From NCBI GenBank assembly GCA_030613245.1, contig JAUWMI010000001.1:186001-250000 (forward strand): a DNA stretch of 64,000 bases, given 5' to 3'. The translations under genes were made by a program, and so were the position numbers. Below the pieces are notes generated by a model that saw only the letters and a program-made list of their open reading frames with translations, was not told where the DNA came from and did not search any database. The DNA is from Candidatus Sumerlaeota bacterium (GTDB taxonomy: Bacteria > Sumerlaeota > Sumerlaeia > MWCT01 > JAUWMI01). Of the stretch, positions 49,841 to 58,274 are shown one piece after another; within the stretch, counting starts at the first letter, position 1, and each line of letters begins with the position of its first letter.

Positions 49841-50560
49841 GAGCCAAACCGTAGTCAGATGGATATCTGCCTGCATCCCAAAGTGCCGGCCTGTGATGTG
49901 TGGCCAGATCCTCAGGGAAAGTGGTAATGCCCTCCATTCATTAGGTCCTTCGCGTCTGTCATCTGTGTCCTTTGGGCCGCGGGACTAAAATCCAACAGTA
50001 GTATATGGTTGATTTTTCAATTTTGGGCCTTTGTGAAATGAGTTACCGTTTTCAGAGAAAAGATAATCCCCCTCACCTTGAGCCTCTCCCCCCAGGGAAG
50101 AGGAAAAACACAAATGAGGTTAAGTTTTCTCTCAAGACCCGTCGCTCTCCCCAGTGAGGAGAGGAAAAACACTGAGCAGACTGCTGTTCATTTTCGCGCA
50201 GCTAAATCATGACAGACAAAATCACTGACATTCGTCAGGAGATTATATTCCACCAGACGGATAACCCTACTTCCCTCTCCCCTGGGGGGAGAGGGATAGG
50301 GTGAGGGGGCTACAAGAACAGATTGTTATGAACGCAATCCTCTCTGCAAAAGCCTAAGAAACCTGTTTTCCCTATGTGATTCGATCGCTATTTTGCTAAC
50401 CTATCCAACAAAGAGCCTTAGGGAGAAACCTGATTCCGGAAGTAATCAGGCTTAATGAGCAATGCATTGACAGGCTTATCGGGCTTTCGTATATAAAAAG
50501 TGTGTGCTGAATGTTTCAATCATCTGAGCTGGTCAGAATTAAGAGGGACGAGATCGCCTG
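49841..50560. other. Gene-free stretch with CT-rich repeats
   Basis: 720 bases between divergent genes. Holds repeat units CCCCCTCACCTTGAGCCTCTCC at about 50068 and the inverted form CTCCCCTGGGGGGAGAGGG at about 50277, plus a partial unit near 50150 (CTCTCCCCAGTGAGGAGAGG). No convincing open frame. Confidence 0.6.
50068..50310. repeat. Inverted CT-rich repeat cluster
   Basis: Two opposed copies and one partial copy of the CCCTCACC...CTCTCCCC(C)AGGGGAGAGG intergenic family also seen at 33979-34020. The opposed pair could fold into a long-range stem. Confidence 0.6.
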
Positions 50561-51412
50561 ATGGATATTCTGTTTCTGGGTACCGGTGCAGCAGAGGGTT
50601 TTCCAAATCCGTTTTGCGAGTGCCCGAGCTGTAGGGCAGCGCGACGCGAAAAGGGTTCAGCCCTGCGAGGCAACAGCGCCCTGCTGATTAATGGCGATCT
50701 GCTGATTGACGTGGGGCCGAGCGTCCTGGCCAATGCTACCCGCTTCGGCGTTTCTCTGGCCGCGGTACACACCGTATTGTTGACCCACCCGCATCCGGAT
50801 CATCTCTATGCGCCAAGCTTCAGGGCGCGGCGCTACGTAGCTAAGACCCGTCTGCCTTTGTTGCACATTTATGGCGCTGCCCCAACCATGCGGAAGCTTA
50901 CAGGCGGTCTGAAGGCACTTCAACACCGAAGAACGACTCTACAACAGATTGCCCATCTTTATCGACTCCGCTTTCATACCGTGCGTCCGTTCCAGAGCTG
51001 GCGCCGCCGGCAGTATCGTATCACCACGTTTTTGGCCAACCACCAGAACGATCGCTTTGTGCCATTGCTCTTCGGCATTGCCGAGCGTCATACTCATCTA
51101 CTTTATGCTTGCGACACCATGCTTTTACCAGAGGAAACCTGGAAGGCGCTGCGTCGCCATCGGTTTGACGCAATCATACTGGACGAAGCTACCGGATTTC
51201 AGGATCAGCAGGTGAATATTGATCATTTGAACATGGAAAATTTTCTTGCTCATCATCGGCGCTTTACCACGGAAAGAATCCTGAAGCCCGGCGGATTGTT
51301 CTTTGCAAATCACCTTGCACATTTTGGGAATCCCGCGCATAGGGAATTGACGCGATATCTCCGACGTCACAATATTCGTGTCGCGTATGACGGGTTGCGC
51401 GTACGACTCTAA
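50561..51412 (+). CDS. MBL-fold metallohydrolase (PhnP-like)
   Basis: 283 residues. MDILFLGTGAAEGFPNPFCECPSC gives the metallo-beta-lactamase first strand and a C-x-C-x-x-C zinc element (Cys19, 21, 24) as in PhnP. The metal site His76-x-His78-x-Asp80-His81 is in LLTHPHPDHL; later ligands are likely in LLYACDTML, NIDHLNMENF and FFANHLAHFG. PhnP is a cyclic phosphodiesterase in phosphonate use, but no phn gene is near, so the substrate is open. Overlaps nothing; the following GT2 starts 20 bases later, probably in the same transcript. Confidence 0.88.
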   Translation: MDILFLGTGAAEGFPNPFCECPSCRAARREKGSALRGNSALLINGDLLIDVGPSVLANATRFGVSLAAVHTVLLTHPHPDHLYAPSFRARRYVAKTRLPLLHIYGAAPTMRKLTGGLKALQHRRTTLQQIAHLYRLRFHTVRPFQSWRRRQYRITTFLANHQNDRFVPLLFGIAERHTHLLYACDTMLLPEETWKALRRHRFDAIILDEATGFQDQQVNIDHLNMENFLAHHRRFTTERILKPGGLFFANHLAHFGNPAHRELTRYLRRHNIRVAYDGLRVRL

Positions 51413-51431
51413 AAATAAAGTGTAGTTGCTT

Positions 51432-52262
51432 ATGAATCGAATCAGTGTGATCATTCCGACGTACAATCGTGCTGATGGGGTTGTGGCAGCGCTCGGATCG
51501 GTACTGGCGCAGACGCAACCCCCAGACGAGGTGATTATCGTAGACGATGGCTCCAATGACAATACGTCCGAGCGTCTCGCACCCTACCGTGAACGTATTC
51601 ATTACGTGTTCCAGCCGAATCGAGGCCCTGCAAGCGCCCGCAACAGGGGCGTCCAGCATGCCTCAGGTGAGCTGGTCGCCTTCCTCGATTCTGACGATCT
51701 CTGGCTTCCGAAGAAACTCGAACGTCAGCTCGCTGCCTTCGCCAATGACCCTGCTCTTCGCATCTGCCATACGAATGAAATCTGGATTCGCAACGGCGTG
51801 CGTGTCAACCCGATGAAGAAACATCAGAAATATGGAGGGCATATCTTTGAAAAGGTCTTACCACTCTGTATCGTGAGTCCGTCCTCGATAATGATGACAC
51901 GCCAACTCCTGAACGAAATGGGTGGGTTTGACGGGTCGCTGCCAGCGTGCGAAGACTACGACTTATGGCTGCGGGTGCTGTGCCGCTATCCTATTGCTTA
52001 CATCGAAGAGCCACTTGTCATAAAACACGGCGGCCATGCTGATCAGCTCTCCCGTACTATCAAAGGATTGGATCAATACCGAATTCGTGCATTGGAAAAG
52101 CTGCTGGCGAGCGGAATCCTTACACCTGAACAGTACCGGCTAGCGCTGGATGAGCTCACGCGAAAGTGCAAGATTTATGGAGCCGGTTGCGTGAAGCATG
52201 GCAAGCCTGAGGAGGGTAATTACTATCTGCGTCTGCCCTCAAAATATGCGACGGTGGCGTGA
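51432..52262 (+). CDS. Family 2 glycosyltransferase
   Basis: 276 residues. GT-A motifs: RISVIIPTYNRADGVVAALGSVLAQTQPPDEVIIVDDGSNDNT, GPASARNRGVQHASGELVAFLDSDDLWLPKKLERQL (DxD-type DSDD), HTNEIWIRNGVRVNP, and FDGSLPACEDYDLWLRVLCRYPIAYIEEPLV with the catalytic-acid ED. Soluble. It begins at ATG 51432 (an ATG two codons earlier exists). Likely acts on an envelope glycan. Confidence 0.92.
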   Translation: MNRISVIIPTYNRADGVVAALGSVLAQTQPPDEVIIVDDGSNDNTSERLAPYRERIHYVFQPNRGPASARNRGVQHASGELVAFLDSDDLWLPKKLERQLAAFANDPALRICHTNEIWIRNGVRVNPMKKHQKYGGHIFEKVLPLCIVSPSSIMMTRQLLNEMGGFDGSLPACEDYDLWLRVLCRYPIAYIEEPLVIKHGGHADQLSRTIKGLDQYRIRALEKLLASGILTPEQYRLALDELTRKCKIYGAGCVKHGKPEEGNYYLRLPSKYATVA

Positions 52263-52356
52263 TAATTCGGAATAACGCCGGGCGGGGGATGCCTTACGCA
52301 CGCCCTAGCCGCGCAGACGCAGCCGATTTCCAGAATTAAACAAGGAGACAACTGTC

Positions 52357-52773
52357 ATGAGCCAAACGATTCGTTTCGGAGTGTCACTTGAAGAGTCATT
52401 GCTCCGACAATTTGATCGCTTTATTGTGGAACACCGGTATCCTAGCCGCTCTGAAGCCATTCGCGATCTGATTCGCGAGAGGCTGGTCTCGCGTGAGTGG
52501 GCCGTCGGCAAAGAGATCGTGGGCACCGTCACTGTCGTGTATAATCATCATGTGCCAGGGCTGAATGCGCGTCTCACCGATCTGCAACACCACTTTTGCG
52601 GCTCGATCATCTCAACGCTCCATGTGCATCTGGATCGCGACAACTGTCTGGAGGTGCTGGTCGTGCGTGGCAAGAGCAGGGAGGTGCGCATGCTGGCCGA
52701 GCGCTTGCAAAGCGTGCGCGGCGTGAAGCACTCAACCTTTACCATGACCACGACCGGCCGAGCACTGCGCTGA
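52357..52773 (+). CDS. nikR: Nickel-responsive regulator NikR
   Basis: Ribbon-helix-helix repressor with an ACT-like metal domain. RHH at residues 1-47 (IRFGVSLEESLLRQFDRFIVEHRYPSRSEAIRDLIRERL). The high-affinity nickel ligands are conserved as His78, His89, His91 and Cys97 (LQHHFCGSIISTLHVHLDRDNCLEV), matching E. coli His76/87/89/Cys95 with an offset of two. 138 residues, full length. It precedes the nickel transporter genes and should repress them when nickel is sufficient. Confidence 0.96.
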   Translation: MSQTIRFGVSLEESLLRQFDRFIVEHRYPSRSEAIRDLIRERLVSREWAVGKEIVGTVTVVYNHHVPGLNARLTDLQHHFCGSIISTLHVHLDRDNCLEVLVVRGKSREVRMLAERLQSVRGVKHSTFTMTTTGRALR

Positions 52774-52825
52774 GAATAATTTCTATTGACAAATTGGCTG
52801 AGAAGGCTTTTTTTATTAGTATTGC

Positions 52826-52852
52826 GTGTTACTTTTCATCAATAGATGTTAC
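52826..52852 (+). promoter_or_regulatory. Candidate NikR operator
   Basis: GTGTTAC, 13 bases, ATGTTAC lies between nikR and nikMN. GTGTTAC is the half-site described for NikR in Desulfovibrio-type bacteria, with 13-base spacing, but there the second half is inverted (GTAACAC); here it is in direct orientation. ATTAGTA/TACTAAT (52815-52821, 52850-52856) form an inverted pair around it. A TTGACA stands at 52786 without a good -10. Tentative. Confidence 0.4.
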
Positions 52853-52977
52853 TAATTTTGGAAAAATTTTTCTTCTCCCTCTTGCTCACTGCTCAACATA
52901 AGCGCAGCTTGTAGCGCAAAACGCGGCAGCAGAGATTTCGGGCTTTGATGCCGAGGAGAGAGAATCAGAGGCTACCA

Positions 52978-53931
52978 ATGCACATTCCTGATGGATTCTT
53001 GGATACGAAGACGTGGATGATCTGCCTGGGTGCTGCAGGTATCGGGTTGGCTGTCGTGGTTCATCAGACAAATCGGCAAGTGCGAGAGCGCATTGTTCCA
53101 CTCGCAGCTACTGTAGGCGCATTTGTTTTTGTCGCGCAAATGATTAATTTCCCCGTGGGTGGGGGAACCTCAGGGCATTTATTGGGGGGCACGCTGATGG
53201 CGCTGCTTTTTGGGCCGTGGCTGGCGGCGCTTGTCATGACGGTAGTGCTGCTGGTTCAATGTTTGATTTTTCAGGACGGAGGGCTGCTGGCCTTAGGCGC
53301 AAACTGCTTTAACATGGCATTTGTAGGCGTGTTCAGCGGATATTTTGCCTATCAGCTGCTCTGGCGACTTCTCCCGCGGAGGCTTCGAGTCGCGCTCAGT
53401 GCCTTTCTCGCTGCATGGTTCTCAGTTGTGCTCAGCGCCGCTGTCTGCTCCATGGAACTCGCGTTTTCTGGCATCGTACCTCTTAAGCAAAGTCTGATTG
53501 TCATGACGTCGGTACACACGCTGATCGGTGTAGGCGAGGGACTCATTACAGCAGCCATCTTAGCAGCTCTTTATCGTCAGAAGCATGCGGTGGTTCCTGC
53601 AACCGAGCGAGCTCCGGTCACGCGCTGGGAATACCTCTTTGGCTTTGGACTGCTCTGTGTGATCGGCCTGTTTCTTGCCCCATTTGCTTCTCCGCTGCCA
53701 GATGGACTTGAAAAGACCGCCAGCCAGTTGAATTTCCTTTCCAATGAACAGACCATTGCCCCTTCGGTAATTCCAGGTTATGAATTCCCGGGTGTCCACT
53801 CGAGTTTTCTTGCCGTGCTCCTCGCTGGGCTGGTGGGACTCTTTCTCGTGCTGGCATTCACCTATGGTCTGCTCCGGCTGACTCAGCGCAGGTCGGCAGC
53901 GCATGAAGGACGCAAAACCGATGCACCATGA
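52978..53931 (+). CDS. nikM: Nickel ECF transporter substrate component NikMN (CbiM/CbiN fusion)
   Basis: 318 residues with about eight membrane helices. The start at ATG 52978 gives MHIPDGFLD, the conserved N-terminus whose Met1-His2 backbone binds the metal; longer forms would bury it. AGAGG precedes it. INFPVGGGTSGHLLGGTLMALLFGPW and GANCFNMAFVG are CbiM/NikM signatures. The C-terminal third holds APFASPLPDGLEKTA, the CbiN/NikN-type extracellular motif, so M and N parts are fused as in many NikMN. NikR upstream points to nickel, not cobalt. Confidence 0.94.
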   Translation: MHIPDGFLDTKTWMICLGAAGIGLAVVVHQTNRQVRERIVPLAATVGAFVFVAQMINFPVGGGTSGHLLGGTLMALLFGPWLAALVMTVVLLVQCLIFQDGGLLALGANCFNMAFVGVFSGYFAYQLLWRLLPRRLRVALSAFLAAWFSVVLSAAVCSMELAFSGIVPLKQSLIVMTSVHTLIGVGEGLITAAILAALYRQKHAVVPATERAPVTRWEYLFGFGLLCVIGLFLAPFASPLPDGLEKTASQLNFLSNEQTIAPSVIPGYEFPGVHSSFLAVLLAGLVGLFLVLAFTYGLLRLTQRRSAAHEGRKTDAP

Positions 53932-54700
53932 CTTTCTCGACAAATATAGCGATCTCGACACCCCGCTTCATCGCCTTGATGCACGGATTAAAATGTTGAG
54001 CGCAGTGGCGCTACTCGTGGCCGTTGTAGTGACGCCTCCCCGGCAGCCGGCAGAATTTATCCTCTTTGCGCTGCTCCTCGCACTCCTCACTCTGATCTCT
54101 CGCGTACCTGTGTTGCACATCATTAAGAAGTCACTCATTCTTTCCCCTTTCATTCTTCTGGTTGCAATTTTTCTTCCGTTCATGAAAGGGGGAACCACGC
54201 TCTGGGAAGGCCATTTCGTCGTTCCTCTGCGCATAAGCCAGGAAGGCATCTATATTTTTCTCAATGTCGTGTGTAAGGCATATCTTGCGCTGGCCACAAT
54301 GATCTTGCTGTCAGCTACAACACCATTTATTCAGATTTTACATGCCATGCAAGCGTTTCGCGTTCCCCGGCTGGTGATCATGATCCTTTCCTTTATGTAC
54401 CGCTACATCTTCCTCTTGATTGACGAGGCCGAACGGATGCTGACCGCGCATGAGGCGCGCCGGTTTGGCCTACGGAGGCGGCGCAAGCTGACGTCGTTCG
54501 GCCAGCTGGTGGGCGTGCTCTTTTTGCGCACGTATGAGCGTGGCGAACGCGTCTACCAGGCAATGACATCGCGCGGATTTGACGGAACCGTACGCGTGAT
54601 GGAGCGTCCGCGCCTGACTACTACGGACGGCCTTCTCGCGGCTTTGTTTATCACACTGCTGGCAATTATCAAGGTGCTTGGAGCTCTCCTCTATGTTTGA
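53921..54700 (+). CDS. nikQ: ECF transporter transmembrane component NikQ/CbiQ
   Basis: T-component that couples ATP hydrolysis to the substrate unit. 259 residues from ATG 53921, which has AAGGA upstream and overlaps nikMN by 11 bases. Membrane helices in the N-terminal half and the coupling-helix region LSATTPFIQILHAMQAFRVPRLVIMILSFMYRYIFLLIDEAERMLTAHEARRFG and GERVYQAMTSRGFDG, which carry the two Ala-Arg-Arg/Ser-Arg-Gly motifs contacting the ATPase. Confidence 0.94.
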   Translation: MHHDFLDKYSDLDTPLHRLDARIKMLSAVALLVAVVVTPPRQPAEFILFALLLALLTLISRVPVLHIIKKSLILSPFILLVAIFLPFMKGGTTLWEGHFVVPLRISQEGIYIFLNVVCKAYLALATMILLSATTPFIQILHAMQAFRVPRLVIMILSFMYRYIFLLIDEAERMLTAHEARRFGLRRRRKLTSFGQLVGVLFLRTYERGERVYQAMTSRGFDGTVRVMERPRLTTTDGLLAALFITLLAIIKVLGALLYV

Positions 54701-55472
54701 TGCGACCAACGAACCCTCCACAGTGCGCATGGCACTTGAAGTCCAGAATCTCTCCTACACGTATCCCGACGGCACGCGTGCACTTGATGGCGTATCATTC
54801 CGGGTGCAGGAAGGCGAAAAGGTAGCCCTGGTTGGGCCAAATGGGGCTGGAAAATCAACGCTCCTGCTGCAGCTCAATGGTATTAAGCGCGGTGACGGCA
54901 TGGTGAAAGTATTTAGCGTTGAGGTGTCTCAAGCTACGCTCAAGCTCATCCGCCAGCAAGTGGGCCTGGTGTTTCAAGACCCTCAGGATCAGCTCTTCTG
55001 TCCAACCATATTTGAAGACGTTGCCTTTGGCCCACTCAATCTCGGACTCGATGCCCAGGAAATTCATAAGCGAGTGCACCAGGCGCTGTCTGAGGTTGAA
55101 ATGCAGGACTACGAGCGCCATTCGTCGTTTCATTTGAGCTCAGGCGAACAGAAGCGCATCGCTATTGCCACCATCCTCTCTGTCCAGCCGGAGATCCTGG
55201 TGATTGATGAGCCGTCGAGCAATCTGGACCCGAAACACCGCCGTCAGCTGATTACATTCCTTCAGCAAAGTCGCAAAACTCTGGTGTTGGCGTCCCACGA
55301 CCTGGATCTGGTACTCGAGGTGTGCACGCGCTGCATCATCCTGAATCGTGGACGTATTGTCGCCGAGGGTATCCCTGCCGTGATCCTTCGAGACCGAGCC
55401 CTGCTTGAGGAAAACGGTCTTGAGTTACCTCTCTCATTCCAGCGCATTATCCCTGCGAGTGAACCAGAATAG
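54693..55472 (+). CDS. nikO: ECF transporter ATP-binding protein NikO/CbiO
   Basis: 259 residues from ATG 54693, which overlaps the last bases of nikQ (GGAG nine bases upstream). Walker A GPNGAGKST at 48-56, Q-loop VFQDPQDQLF, ABC signature LSSGEQKR at 148-155, Walker B ILVIDEP at 168-174 and H-loop LASHDLDLV. A single ATPase gene suggests a homodimer. Completes the nikR-nikMN-nikQ-nikO module; nickel would serve enzymes such as hydrogenase, urease or CODH that are not in the window. Confidence 0.95.
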   Translation: MFDATNEPSTVRMALEVQNLSYTYPDGTRALDGVSFRVQEGEKVALVGPNGAGKSTLLLQLNGIKRGDGMVKVFSVEVSQATLKLIRQQVGLVFQDPQDQLFCPTIFEDVAFGPLNLGLDAQEIHKRVHQALSEVEMQDYERHSSFHLSSGEQKRIAIATILSVQPEILVIDEPSSNLDPKHRRQLITFLQQSRKTLVLASHDLDLVLEVCTRCIILNRGRIVAEGIPAVILRDRALLEENGLELPLSFQRIIPASEPE

Positions 55473-55641
55473 ATTCCAGCACTGCATTGGGCTTCCCGGG
55501 TGCCACCCTGGAAGAAGCAGCTGATTTGGCGGGACACAACGCTTCGGAACGCTGGCATTCGCAAAAAGGCGCCATTCGCCTTGCTGTTACGGGAAAAACT
55601 TGTTGACAGCCATGCAAAAAGTTAAAACTATTCAAATGAAC

Positions 55642-55796
55642 TTAAGAGCCGAGTTATAGTGCCTTAGAGACACTATCAAAATGCAATTCTAACGCTCCTA
55701 AGGCGCATAAACCACTACGACACAACGTACACGACGGGAGGCGCATTGGCGTCGTGCCGTCGTGGTTTGATAGTTCTTTTTGTCAGGTGCTCTTAA
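55642..55796. repeat. Three-level nested inverted repeat (155 nt)
   Basis: Outer pair TTAAGAGC (55642) / GCTCTTAA (55789), middle pair ACTATCAAA (55672) / TTTGATAGT (55766), inner pair AAACCACTACGACAC / GTCGTGCCGTCGTGGTTT, all nested in order. No open frame. Occupies the 354-base gap before the GH94 gene and looks like a MITE or structured untranslated region. Confidence 0.75.
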
Positions 55797-55826
55797 TACT
55801 TTCTATCACCTCGGACCCAATCTGCA

Positions 55827-58274
55827 ATGCATGATCACTCTCAGGCATCTTCGTCTCAAGTCTCCTCGCAGTGGCTCACAAATAAATACGGGTACTTCGA
55901 TACCCGGGCGCATGAGTTCGTTATCACACGCCCTGATACCCCTGCGCCCTGGATCAACTATATCACCAACGGGAAATATACGGGCCTCATTTCAAATACA
56001 GCCGGCGGTTACAGTTTTTACCTTTCGCCACGAGATGGCCGCATCACCCGATGGCGCTACAACAGCCTACCCCCTGATCGCCCAGGCCGCTATCTCTATA
56101 TCCGGGACAACGCGGATGGCCGGTATTGGTCACCCACCTGGCAGCCTACGTTTACGCCTCTGACTTCCTACGTCTGTCGCCATGGGCTCCACTACACCAT
56201 CATCGAGTCAAGCTATCGTGACATTCGCTCGCGACTGACCTACTTTATCCCAGACGATGATCTGGAAATCTGGAAGGTCGAGCTGGTCAATACCGGAAAT
56301 ACCACGAAAGAGCTGAGCCTGTATGCTTACGTTGAGCTGTGCCTGGGCCATGCACTTGTTGATCTGATCAATCAGCCGAATGACCAGCATTTCAATACGG
56401 TACGCTTTCTCGCGGACGATGAGATACTGCTGGCAACTAAGCGGTACTGGGTGACGTTCGATCGCGCCACCGTTCGGCAGTCCAATCAGGCCTGGAACAG
56501 GTGGGCATTTATGGCCTCCGGGTTGCCCGTGGACGGGTTTGACGGGTCAAGAGCCCAGTTCATCGGCCGGTGGCGTTCAGAACAGAACCCCCGGGCCATT
56601 GAGCTTGGGACCATCTACAACAGTGCAATTACAGCCGGAGATGCCGTGGCTGCCATAAAAATCCCGGTTGTCTTGAAGCCCGGCGAGGAGCTGATATTTC
56701 CGATTCTCCTCGGCGTAGTAGGTTGCGAGCACCCGGAACGTGACGCCCGAAATCTTGTCGGGAAATATCGTCGGCTGGACACCGTTGAGGCTGCGTTTAC
56801 GCGGCTGAAAGAAGAAATGGATGACTACCTCAGTGCCGTCCAGGTAAGCGTCCCCGATCCGGAAATGCAGCTAATGCTGAATTGCTGGAACCAGTACCAG
56901 GCCAAAGTCGCGTTCCAGTGTTCGCGCAATGCTTCCTACCACCACGGCGGCCTGCTGTTTGGCCGCGGATTTCGCGACTCCTGCCAGGATAGCCTCGGCC
57001 CACTGCTCACACGCCCTGCCTGGGTGCGTGACCGGATTTTTGAGATGGCGCAGCAACAATTCAAGAGTGGTGAGACCTTCCACTGCTACTATCCGACAAG
57101 CGGAGGCGGAGAGCAAACCGGCCATTCAGACACTGCGCTATGGCTTCCATTTGTTGCATGCATGTATGTGAAGGAGACAGGCGACTTTGAGATTCTCAAG
57201 CGCCTGGTGCCTTACGTGGATGGCGGCAACGCATCACTCATGAAACACTTGCTCGGTGCACTCCACTATAGCCTGACGCGGCTCAGCCCCCGTAAACTTC
57301 TCCTGTTCGGGCCCGGCGATTGGAATGACACTCTGGATTATTTGGGCCGAGAAGGAAAGGGCGAGACGGTCTGGGGTTCAATGTTTCTCTGTTACGTCCT
57401 GAGAGAAATGATCGAGCTCCTCGGCCAATGCAAGCATCCACAAACGACACACTATCAGCATCGGTACGACCAGATTAAGAGTGCAATCAACCGCTATTGC
57501 TGGGATGGGCGCTGGTACATTCGCGGTACGAATGATGCGGGCGCAAGAATCGGCTCGGTCAAGTGCAAGGAAGGCAAGATCTTTCTTAACACCCAGAGCT
57601 GGGCCATCATGAGCGCGGTGGCTGAAGGAAATCGTGTTGCGCAATGCCTCGACTCTGTTGCGCAGCATCTCTCCACGTCCAAAGGCCCGAAGATTCTTCA
57701 CCCACCCTATGCAACTATCAATCCGCAAATTGGACTAGTAACCCGGTGCGTCCCGGGCAAGAAGGAGAACGGCGCGGTGTTCAATCATGCGGCTGCCTGG
57801 GCCATGCTGGCTGACCTCATGGCTGGTAGAGCCGAACAGGCCTATGAGATTTACCGCCAGATGCTGCCCATGAATCCGGAGATTGATATTGATCGCTATG
57901 AGGTCGAGCCCTACGTCTACGCTGAATATGTCACTAGCCCCGATCATCCGACATACGGGCAGGCGAGCCATTCGTGGCTTACCGGATCAAGTGTCTGGAT
58001 GCTGCGGATTGCTCTTGATTACCTTTTAGGCGTGCGTCCGGCTTACGATGGCCTGGTGGTTGACCCTTGCATTCCCCGCAATTGGGATGGCTACACTGTA
58101 AAACGCACGTTTCGCGGCGCAAGCTATGAGATCTCCGTGAGCAATCCGCATCATGTGAACCGCGGGGTACAAAGTTTAGCGTGTAATGGGCAGATTCTGG
58201 AAAAGCCGATGATTCCTATCATGGCTGATGGGAAGATCCATAAGGTCAATGCCATTCTGGGGCCTCTAAGCTGA
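55827..58274 (+). CDS. Glycoside hydrolase family 94 phosphorylase
   Basis: 815 residues, full length for GH94 (cellobiose, chitobiose or related disaccharide phosphorylases): cuts a beta-linked disaccharide with phosphate to sugar 1-phosphate. N-terminal NKYGYFDTRAHEFVITRPDTPAPWINYITNGKYTGLISNTAGGYSFYLSPRDGRITRWR, middle FGRGFRDSCQDSLG, and catalytic region HSDTALWLPF ... GPGDWNDTLDYLGREGKGETVWGSMF with general acid Asp in GDWND (Asp498 or Asp501). C-terminal SHSWLTGSSVWMLRIALDYLLGVRPAYDGLVVDPCIPRNWDGY. No signal peptide, so cytoplasmic. The substrate cannot be read from motifs alone. No strong ribosome site at the ATG. Confidence 0.93.
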   Translation: MHDHSQASSSQVSSQWLTNKYGYFDTRAHEFVITRPDTPAPWINYITNGKYTGLISNTAGGYSFYLSPRDGRITRWRYNSLPPDRPGRYLYIRDNADGRYWSPTWQPTFTPLTSYVCRHGLHYTIIESSYRDIRSRLTYFIPDDDLEIWKVELVNTGNTTKELSLYAYVELCLGHALVDLINQPNDQHFNTVRFLADDEILLATKRYWVTFDRATVRQSNQAWNRWAFMASGLPVDGFDGSRAQFIGRWRSEQNPRAIELGTIYNSAITAGDAVAAIKIPVVLKPGEELIFPILLGVVGCEHPERDARNLVGKYRRLDTVEAAFTRLKEEMDDYLSAVQVSVPDPEMQLMLNCWNQYQAKVAFQCSRNASYHHGGLLFGRGFRDSCQDSLGPLLTRPAWVRDRIFEMAQQQFKSGETFHCYYPTSGGGEQTGHSDTALWLPFVACMYVKETGDFEILKRLVPYVDGGNASLMKHLLGALHYSLTRLSPRKLLLFGPGDWNDTLDYLGREGKGETVWGSMFLCYVLREMIELLGQCKHPQTTHYQHRYDQIKSAINRYCWDGRWYIRGTNDAGARIGSVKCKEGKIFLNTQSWAIMSAVAEGNRVAQCLDSVAQHLSTSKGPKILHPPYATINPQIGLVTRCVPGKKENGAVFNHAAAWAMLADLMAGRAEQAYEIYRQMLPMNPEIDIDRYEVEPYVYAEYVTSPDHPTYGQASHSWLTGSSVWMLRIALDYLLGVRPAYDGLVVDPCIPRNWDGYTVKRTFRGASYEISVSNPHHVNRGVQSLACNGQILEKPMIPIMADGKIHKVNAILGPLS

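What the first reader, a model, noticed from the sequence alone, without database searches (positions are those of the whole stretch)
52357..55472. Complete nickel uptake module with a possible direct-repeat operator
Seen: nikR with all four metal ligands, then overlapping nikMN, nikQ and nikO. Between nikR and nikMN lies GTGTTAC-N13-ATGTTAC. Established: NikR half-sites GTGTTAC with 13-base spacing are known from Desulfovibrio-type bacteria, but inverted. A direct-repeat operator would require a different NikR arrangement on DNA.
Basis: partly seen in the sequence, partly recalled or inferred. Interest (0 to 1): 0.5.

Follow-up and report, generated by a model that had tools for sequence, protein, structure and literature searches.

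The report
Nickel repressor site with same-way half-sites
A nickel-sensing repressor seems to control a nickel importer through two half-sites that point the same way instead of facing each other, and a survey of related genes suggests that this arrangement is about as common as the textbook mirror-image one, with the same spacing.

Summary
Observation confirmed and extended. The window holds nikR (52357-52773) and overlapping nikMN, nikQ and nikO (52978-55472). GTGTTAC-N13-ATGTTAC lies at 52826-52852 between nikR and nikMN and is the only zero-mismatch direct pair in the genome.

It is not a one-off. Around nikR in 240 clustered representatives, pairs of this half-site (one mismatch allowed in total) stand 20 bp apart as 27 inverted, 30 direct and 8 everted pairs; other spacings average 0.10-0.19 per class. 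Three same-order genomes have direct pairs. Nine loci have an inverted site on one side of a single nikR and a direct one on the other.

A different NikR arrangement is not needed: one spacing for all orientations puts the recognition centre on the middle base of the half-site, so a two-fold symmetric DNA-binding dimer could read each half-site either way. The omega repressor, of the same fold, does so (PMC9499535).

I judge it a new variant of a known operator kind. Binding and repression are inferred, not shown. 137 of 240 loci have no such site.

The parts
52357..52773 (+). nikR, nickel-responsive ribbon-helix-helix repressor, 138 aa; DNA-reading strand R6-F-G8-V-S10 (Arg-Gly-Ser)
52826..52852 (+). 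candidate NikR operator: direct repeat GTGTTAC-N13-ATGTTAC
   Evidence: recurrence in relatives
52826..52832 (+). half-site 1, GTGTTAC (consensus)
52846..52852 (+). half-site 2, ATGTTAC (one base off the consensus)
52978..53931 (+). nikMN: CbiM-type substrate-capture protein fused to a PDGLE (NikN) domain; starts MHIPDG
53903..54700 (+). nikQ: CbiQ-type transmembrane component
54693..55472 (+). nikO: ECF-type ATPase (ATG at 54693; a TTG at 54678 is also possible)

Best explanation
The pair at 52826-52852 is the NikR operator of nikMNQO. With nickel bound, one NikR tetramer spans 20 bp and sets one ribbon-helix-helix dimer on each half-site, which shuts off the importer when nickel is plentiful. 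Each dimer has its own two-fold axis, which falls on the middle base of the half-site GT-nnn-AC. The outer GT and AC read the same from both sides; only the three middle bases are asymmetric. Turning a half-site round therefore leaves the protein geometry unchanged, so direct, inverted and everted pairs at 20 bp are alternatives for the same kind of repressor. Shown here by sequence: the genes, the site, the spacing, and the recurrence of all orientations next to nikR. Inferred: binding, repression, the tetramer geometry and its indifference to half-site direction.
For: Pairs around nikR in 240 representatives, at most one mismatch in total, peak at 20 bp: FR 27, RF 8, FF 19, RR 11; at 21 bp 2, 3, 3, 0; other spacings 8-40 average 0.10-0.19. 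Perfect pairs at 20 bp: 15, 2, 7, 1. Weight-matrix scan of 220 bp on each side of nikR, score 16 or more: 45, 20, 21, 23 at 20 bp; other spacings average 0.25-0.46. Orientation-blind test: GTNNNAC stands 20 bp from 133 perfect half-sites 76 times (perfect pairs count twice), at most 4 times at any other distance from 10 to 35. 9 of the 21 loci with a site on both sides of nikR have one inverted and one direct. Arg-Gly-Ser NikRs account for 42 direct and 48 inverted sites. Inverted and direct upstream sites change at least 13 times on a NikR tree. No third in-phase half-site at 124 sites. Precedent: omega dimers bind direct or inverted heptads (PMC9499535, passages).
Against: No binding data. 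137 of 240 representatives have no such site beside nikR. Among perfect pairs inverted ones lead (15 against 8 direct). Direct sites have a polarity bias (upstream FF 21, RR 6; downstream RR 18, FF 4), which simple indifference does not predict, and the window's site is of the rarer downstream FF kind. One of 60 shuffled heptamers (TTTCAGG) reached 8 direct pairs at 20-21 bp, mean 0.87. The tree has few columns and weak forks, and no shuffled-label comparison was made. No sigma-70 promoter consensus was found to show what the site would block.
Confidence: 0.78

Rival explanations
1. NikR binds the direct repeat but in a different arrangement: for example one tetramer on each half-site, cooperating side by side, or a tetramer with one DNA-binding dimer turned round.
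For: Direct sites have a polarity bias, as an oriented complex might. Cooperative binding by a Geobacter NikR is recalled, not seen here.
Against: Direct pairs keep the spacing of inverted ones, 20 bp, with few at 21, and no array of three or more strong half-sites was found at 124 sites (the control offsets also gave 0).
Confidence: 0.13
2. The window's pair is a decayed or chance remnant: only one half-site matters, or NikR binds elsewhere.
For: The second half-site has a mismatch, the same-family members of the window's genome are not held, and G001 of the same order has no such pair beside nikR.
Against: Unique in the genome, 0 of 20,000 simulated stretches, conserved as a direct pair in three same-order genomes, though there before another operon.
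Confidence: 0.07
3. The importer is controlled by something else in the 204-bp leader, such as a riboswitch, and the pair is unrelated.
For: The leader is long: 125 bases between the site and the nikMN ATG.
Against: No Rfam family at E up to 1 in 50000-57000. The half-site is the one predicted for NikR in delta-proteobacteria (PMC545781), and the pairs cluster at nikR: 58 of the 65 pairs at 20 bp lie within 200 bp of either end of nikR (my count on the list).
Confidence: 0.02

Closest known systems
Predicted NikR operator of delta-proteobacteria (Rodionov et al. 2004, PMC545781; passages and Table 4 read)
   Same: Same half-site GTGTTAC, same N13/14 spacing, same place before nickel transporter genes; that paper also lists everted pairs in Desulfotalea psychrophila and before nikK of Desulfovibrio vulgaris
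   Different: No direct repeat is listed there; here the half-sites point the same way
E. coli NikR operator GTATGA-N16-TCATAC (PMC7055735, passages)
   Same: Two half-sites bridged by one metal-loaded repressor
   Different: Other half-site sequence, strictly palindromic; E. coli NikR has an Arg-Thr-Thr strand (recalled)
Geobacter uraniireducens NikR (Benanti and Chivers 2010; recalled, paper not held)
   Same: Arg-Gly-Ser DNA-reading strand, as recalled
   Different: As recalled it was shown on an inverted repeat
Omega/ParB repressor of plasmid pSM19035 (PMC9499535, passages)
   Same: Ribbon-helix-helix dimer holds one asymmetric 7-bp site; two dimers bind direct or inverted pairs
   Different: Consecutive heptads, separate dimers, no metal domain and no fixed 20-bp bridge

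Membership tests
NikR nickel repressor | Ribbon-helix-helix domain plus NikR_C metal domain over curated cut-offs | tested here: met
NikR nickel repressor | Four nickel ligands (three His, one Cys) | tested here: met
   H78, H89, H91, C97 invariant over 29 sequences; ligand identity recalled
NikR nickel repressor | Nickel-dependent DNA binding as a tetramer | not testable with these tools
   needs purified protein
NikMNQO nickel importer (ECF type) | M, N, Q and O components in one gene run | tested here: met
   Pfam CbiM, PDGLE, CbiQ and ABC_tran over cut-offs; NCBIfam equivalog cut-offs for M and O not reached
NikMNQO nickel importer (ECF type) | Transports nickel and not cobalt | tested here: inconclusive
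   Next to nikR and no B12 riboswitch in 50000-57000; transport untested
GTGTTAC-type NikR operator | Half-site GTGTTAC or one mismatch | tested here: met
GTGTTAC-type NikR operator | N13 or N14 between half-sites | tested here: met
   N13
GTGTTAC-type NikR operator | Inverted orientation | tested here: not met
   Direct; but 49 of 124 sites in the survey are direct too and 23 everted, so the feature itself looks wrong as a definition
Omega-type heptad operator | Runs of adjoining 7-bp repeats | tested here: not met
   13 bases between half-sites, no third in-phase half-site

The most novel reading that the evidence does not exclude
Operator symmetry is not a conserved property of Arg-Gly-Ser NikRs. 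Half-site direction evolves freely and is read by the same tetramer, and its non-random polarity (FF before nikR, RR before the next gene) means that direction is used to tune repression, for example by turning the more tightly held end of the operator towards or away from the promoter.
Probability: 0.22. Interest if true: 0.65.

Novelty: new variant of a known kind. Interest (0 to 1): 0.5.

Why it matters
Regulator sites of this kind are usually sought as palindromes. If direct and everted pairs work equally well, a palindrome search would miss 72 of the 124 sites found here beside nikR. The set also gives a clean test of how a repressor built from two symmetric DNA-binding dimers chooses its sites, which operators of one orientation cannot give.

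Tried and rejected
A riboswitch in the leader: no Rfam match. A sigma-70 promoter or an intrinsic terminator between 52200 and 53050: 0 found, 0.7 and 0.8 expected by chance, so the scan says little. The direct pair as part of a larger array: no third in-phase half-site scoring 8 or more at any of 124 sites; control offsets also gave 0, so the threshold is strict. A wider regulon in this genome: with one mismatch allowed, inverted pairs at N13 (4 places) and direct pairs (14 places, one of them the window's) are not above the reversed-pattern controls (17 per strand; 9 and 12), so nothing is claimed beyond the nik site. Link to the DNA-reading strand: sites beside nikR in 92 of 202 Arg-Gly-Ser, 9 of 16 Arg-Ser-Ser, 2 of 7 Arg-Gly-Ala, 0 of 7 Arg-Thr-Ser and 0 of 4 Arg-Thr-Thr representatives, and 0 of 4 others; the groups other than Arg-Gly-Ser are small. 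Structure prediction was not run; it would not decide orientation.

Dropped before counts: 3 of 318 loci without a NikR frame (L133, L134, L188); the other 315, several of them the same place fetched twice, were clustered by shared 4-mers to 240 representatives. Many loci have only 1.5 kb of flank. Five region calls took 100 stretches; several nikR places listed were not fetched. The named set is the best 80 of 579 confirmed stretches, itself a capped list.

Literature: that I saw no direct NikR pair in print rests on searches in an open-licence library; the main NikR-DNA papers are not held. One search gave two papers, both by title on thyroid hormone receptors; the 15 rows shown hold no NikR. 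The NikR motif table of PMC5317091 (Caldithrix) is in a supplement that could not be read.

Full report
What is there. The window (contig C26 of a 4.29-Mb unnamed bacterial draft genome) holds nikR at 52357-52773, then nikMN 52978-53931, nikQ 53903-54700 and nikO 54693-55472, all on the + strand with short overlaps between the transporter genes. Family searches support each: NikR (NF003381, 189.7 bits, cut-off 105), CbiM plus PDGLE (Pfam), CbiQ (TIGR02454, 164 bits, cut-off 111.8) and an ECF-type ATPase (Pfam ABC_tran; the best NCBIfam model is under its cut-off). Four residues that match the nickel ligands recalled for E. coli sit in columns invariant over 29 NikRs. The genome also has two proteins of the [NiFe]-hydrogenase large-subunit family, each with both CxxC motifs, so a use for nickel is likely.

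The site. GTGTTAC at 52826-52832 and ATGTTAC at 52846-52852 point the same way with 13 bases between them. GTGTTAC alone is no commoner than chance in the window. The pair occurs once in the genome at zero mismatches and did not arise in 20,000 first-order Markov versions of the intergenic stretch.

The survey. I gathered 318 loci, most of them around nikR, from relatives, the window's phylum (40 genomes), the phyla of four other genomes (82, 245, 297 and 1 genomes), region calls and the best 80 loci of named genomes. A NikR frame was found in 315; clustering left 240 representatives. Around nikR (up to 3 kb each side), half-site pairs with at most one mismatch in total peak at one distance, 20 bp from start to start: 27 inverted (FR), 8 everted (RF), 19 FF and 11 RR; at 21 bp 2, 3, 3 and 0; other spacings from 8 to 40 average 0.10-0.19 per class, at most 2. 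Perfect pairs at 20 bp: 15, 2, 7 and 1. Sixty shuffled heptamers gave on average 0.87 direct pairs at 20-21 bp, at most 8. By my count on the list, 58 of the 65 pairs at 20 bp lie within 200 bp of one end of nikR; the other seven (L041, L086, L153, L205, L241, L247, L256) may be chance or belong to other genes.

A weight matrix in the 220 bp on each side of nikR, score 16 or more, gives 45, 20, 21 and 23 hits at 20 bp and 9, 3, 4 and 1 at 21 bp, with 0.25-0.46 on average elsewhere. Taking the best site per side, 103 of 240 loci have one: upstream 41 FR, 21 FF, 16 RF, 6 RR; downstream 18 RR, 11 FR, 7 RF, 4 FF; seven control pairs of spacings gave 1 to 8 sides each, against 124. That is 52 inverted, 49 direct and 23 everted sites. 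An orientation-blind test agrees: GTNNNAC stands 20 bp from 133 perfect half-sites 76 times (perfect pairs count from both ends), at most 4 times at any other distance from 10 to 35.

Same protein, both kinds. 21 loci have a site on each side of nikR; in 9 of them one is inverted and the other direct, for example L071 and L159. On a NikR tree of 103 rows the upstream site changes between inverted and direct at least 13 times (few columns, 42 of 100 inner branches open, no shuffled labels). In family f143 the first half-site is forward in 3 of 10 genomes (L166, L173, L177) and reversed in 7 (L167-L172 and L175), all within the 75 bp before nikR. Among named loci, direct sites occur in nine phyla. 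In the window's own order, G002, G003 and G004 have direct pairs, one of them perfect; G001 has none beside nikR.

How it works. NikR is a tetramer with one ribbon-helix-helix dimer for each half-site (recalled; the E. coli complex paper is not held); [quoted passage not shown] If the recognition centre were not the middle base of the heptamer, inverted and everted pairs would prefer different spacings; both prefer 20. So each dimer's axis should sit on the middle base of GT-nnn-AC, whose outer bases are already palindromic, and the dimer can read the middle in either direction without any change in the tetramer. Spacers are alike in all classes (0.83-0.86 A+T; flanks were not compared). The omega repressor binds direct and inverted heptads with one dimer per heptad (PMC9499535, passages).

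What does not fit. Direct sites have a polarity bias (p about 0.006 upstream and 0.004 downstream, not corrected for relatedness), and the window's site (FF, downstream of nikR) is of the rarer kind. Inverted pairs lead among perfect pairs. More than half of the representatives, 137 of 240, have no such site beside nikR. In the same-order genomes the direct pair stands before a different, divergent operon, so conservation is of the site next to nikR, not of the target.

Known or new. The 2004 prediction for delta-proteobacteria lists inverted pairs and three everted sites for NikR besides, none direct (PMC545781, passages; three by my count of its Table 4 for Desulfotalea, plus one for Desulfovibrio vulgaris nikK). 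'Direct repeat' does not occur in a 2009 survey of nickel use (PMC2667541) or a 2019 review (PMC7055735). Within an open-licence library I found no report of direct-repeat NikR operators (searches in Tried and rejected). I file it as a new variant of a known kind. Interest 0.5: useful and testable, but with a clear precedent in the same protein fold.

Noticed in passing
L220:1979-5844, L221:1296-5232, L222:1935-5898 (minus strand, loci oriented with nikR on +): In three same-order genomes the direct-repeat site lies 14-17 bases before a divergent operon: a secreted protein of about 270 aa (weak DUF5689 match), a pilin-like protein, and a ZnuA-type binding protein, ABC ATPase and ABC-3 permease (families tested in L220 only). 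It may be a NikR-controlled nickel importer of ZnuABC type.
   Followed up: partly
sites, all representatives: Polarity bias of direct pairs relative to nikR: upstream FF 21 and RR 6, downstream RR 18 and FF 4. No explanation found.
   Followed up: partly
L019, L026, L028, L029, L031 (family f6 of the window's class): These NikRs begin RYTVS or RYTIT, an Arg-Thr strand instead of Arg-Gly-Ser; none of the 11 Arg-Thr representatives has a GTGTTAC pair beside nikR. They probably use another operator.
   Followed up: no
window 55656-55796: Nested inverted repeats between nikO and the next gene, among them a 19-nt pair at 55709-55727 and 55750-55768 and a perfect 9-nt pair at 55672-55680 and 55766-55774.
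   Followed up: no
G000:C82:37988-39256 and G000:C93:40917-42056: Two [NiFe]-hydrogenase large-subunit proteins of this genome, each with RICG.CP and DPC..CATH motifs, likely users of the nickel.
   Followed up: partly
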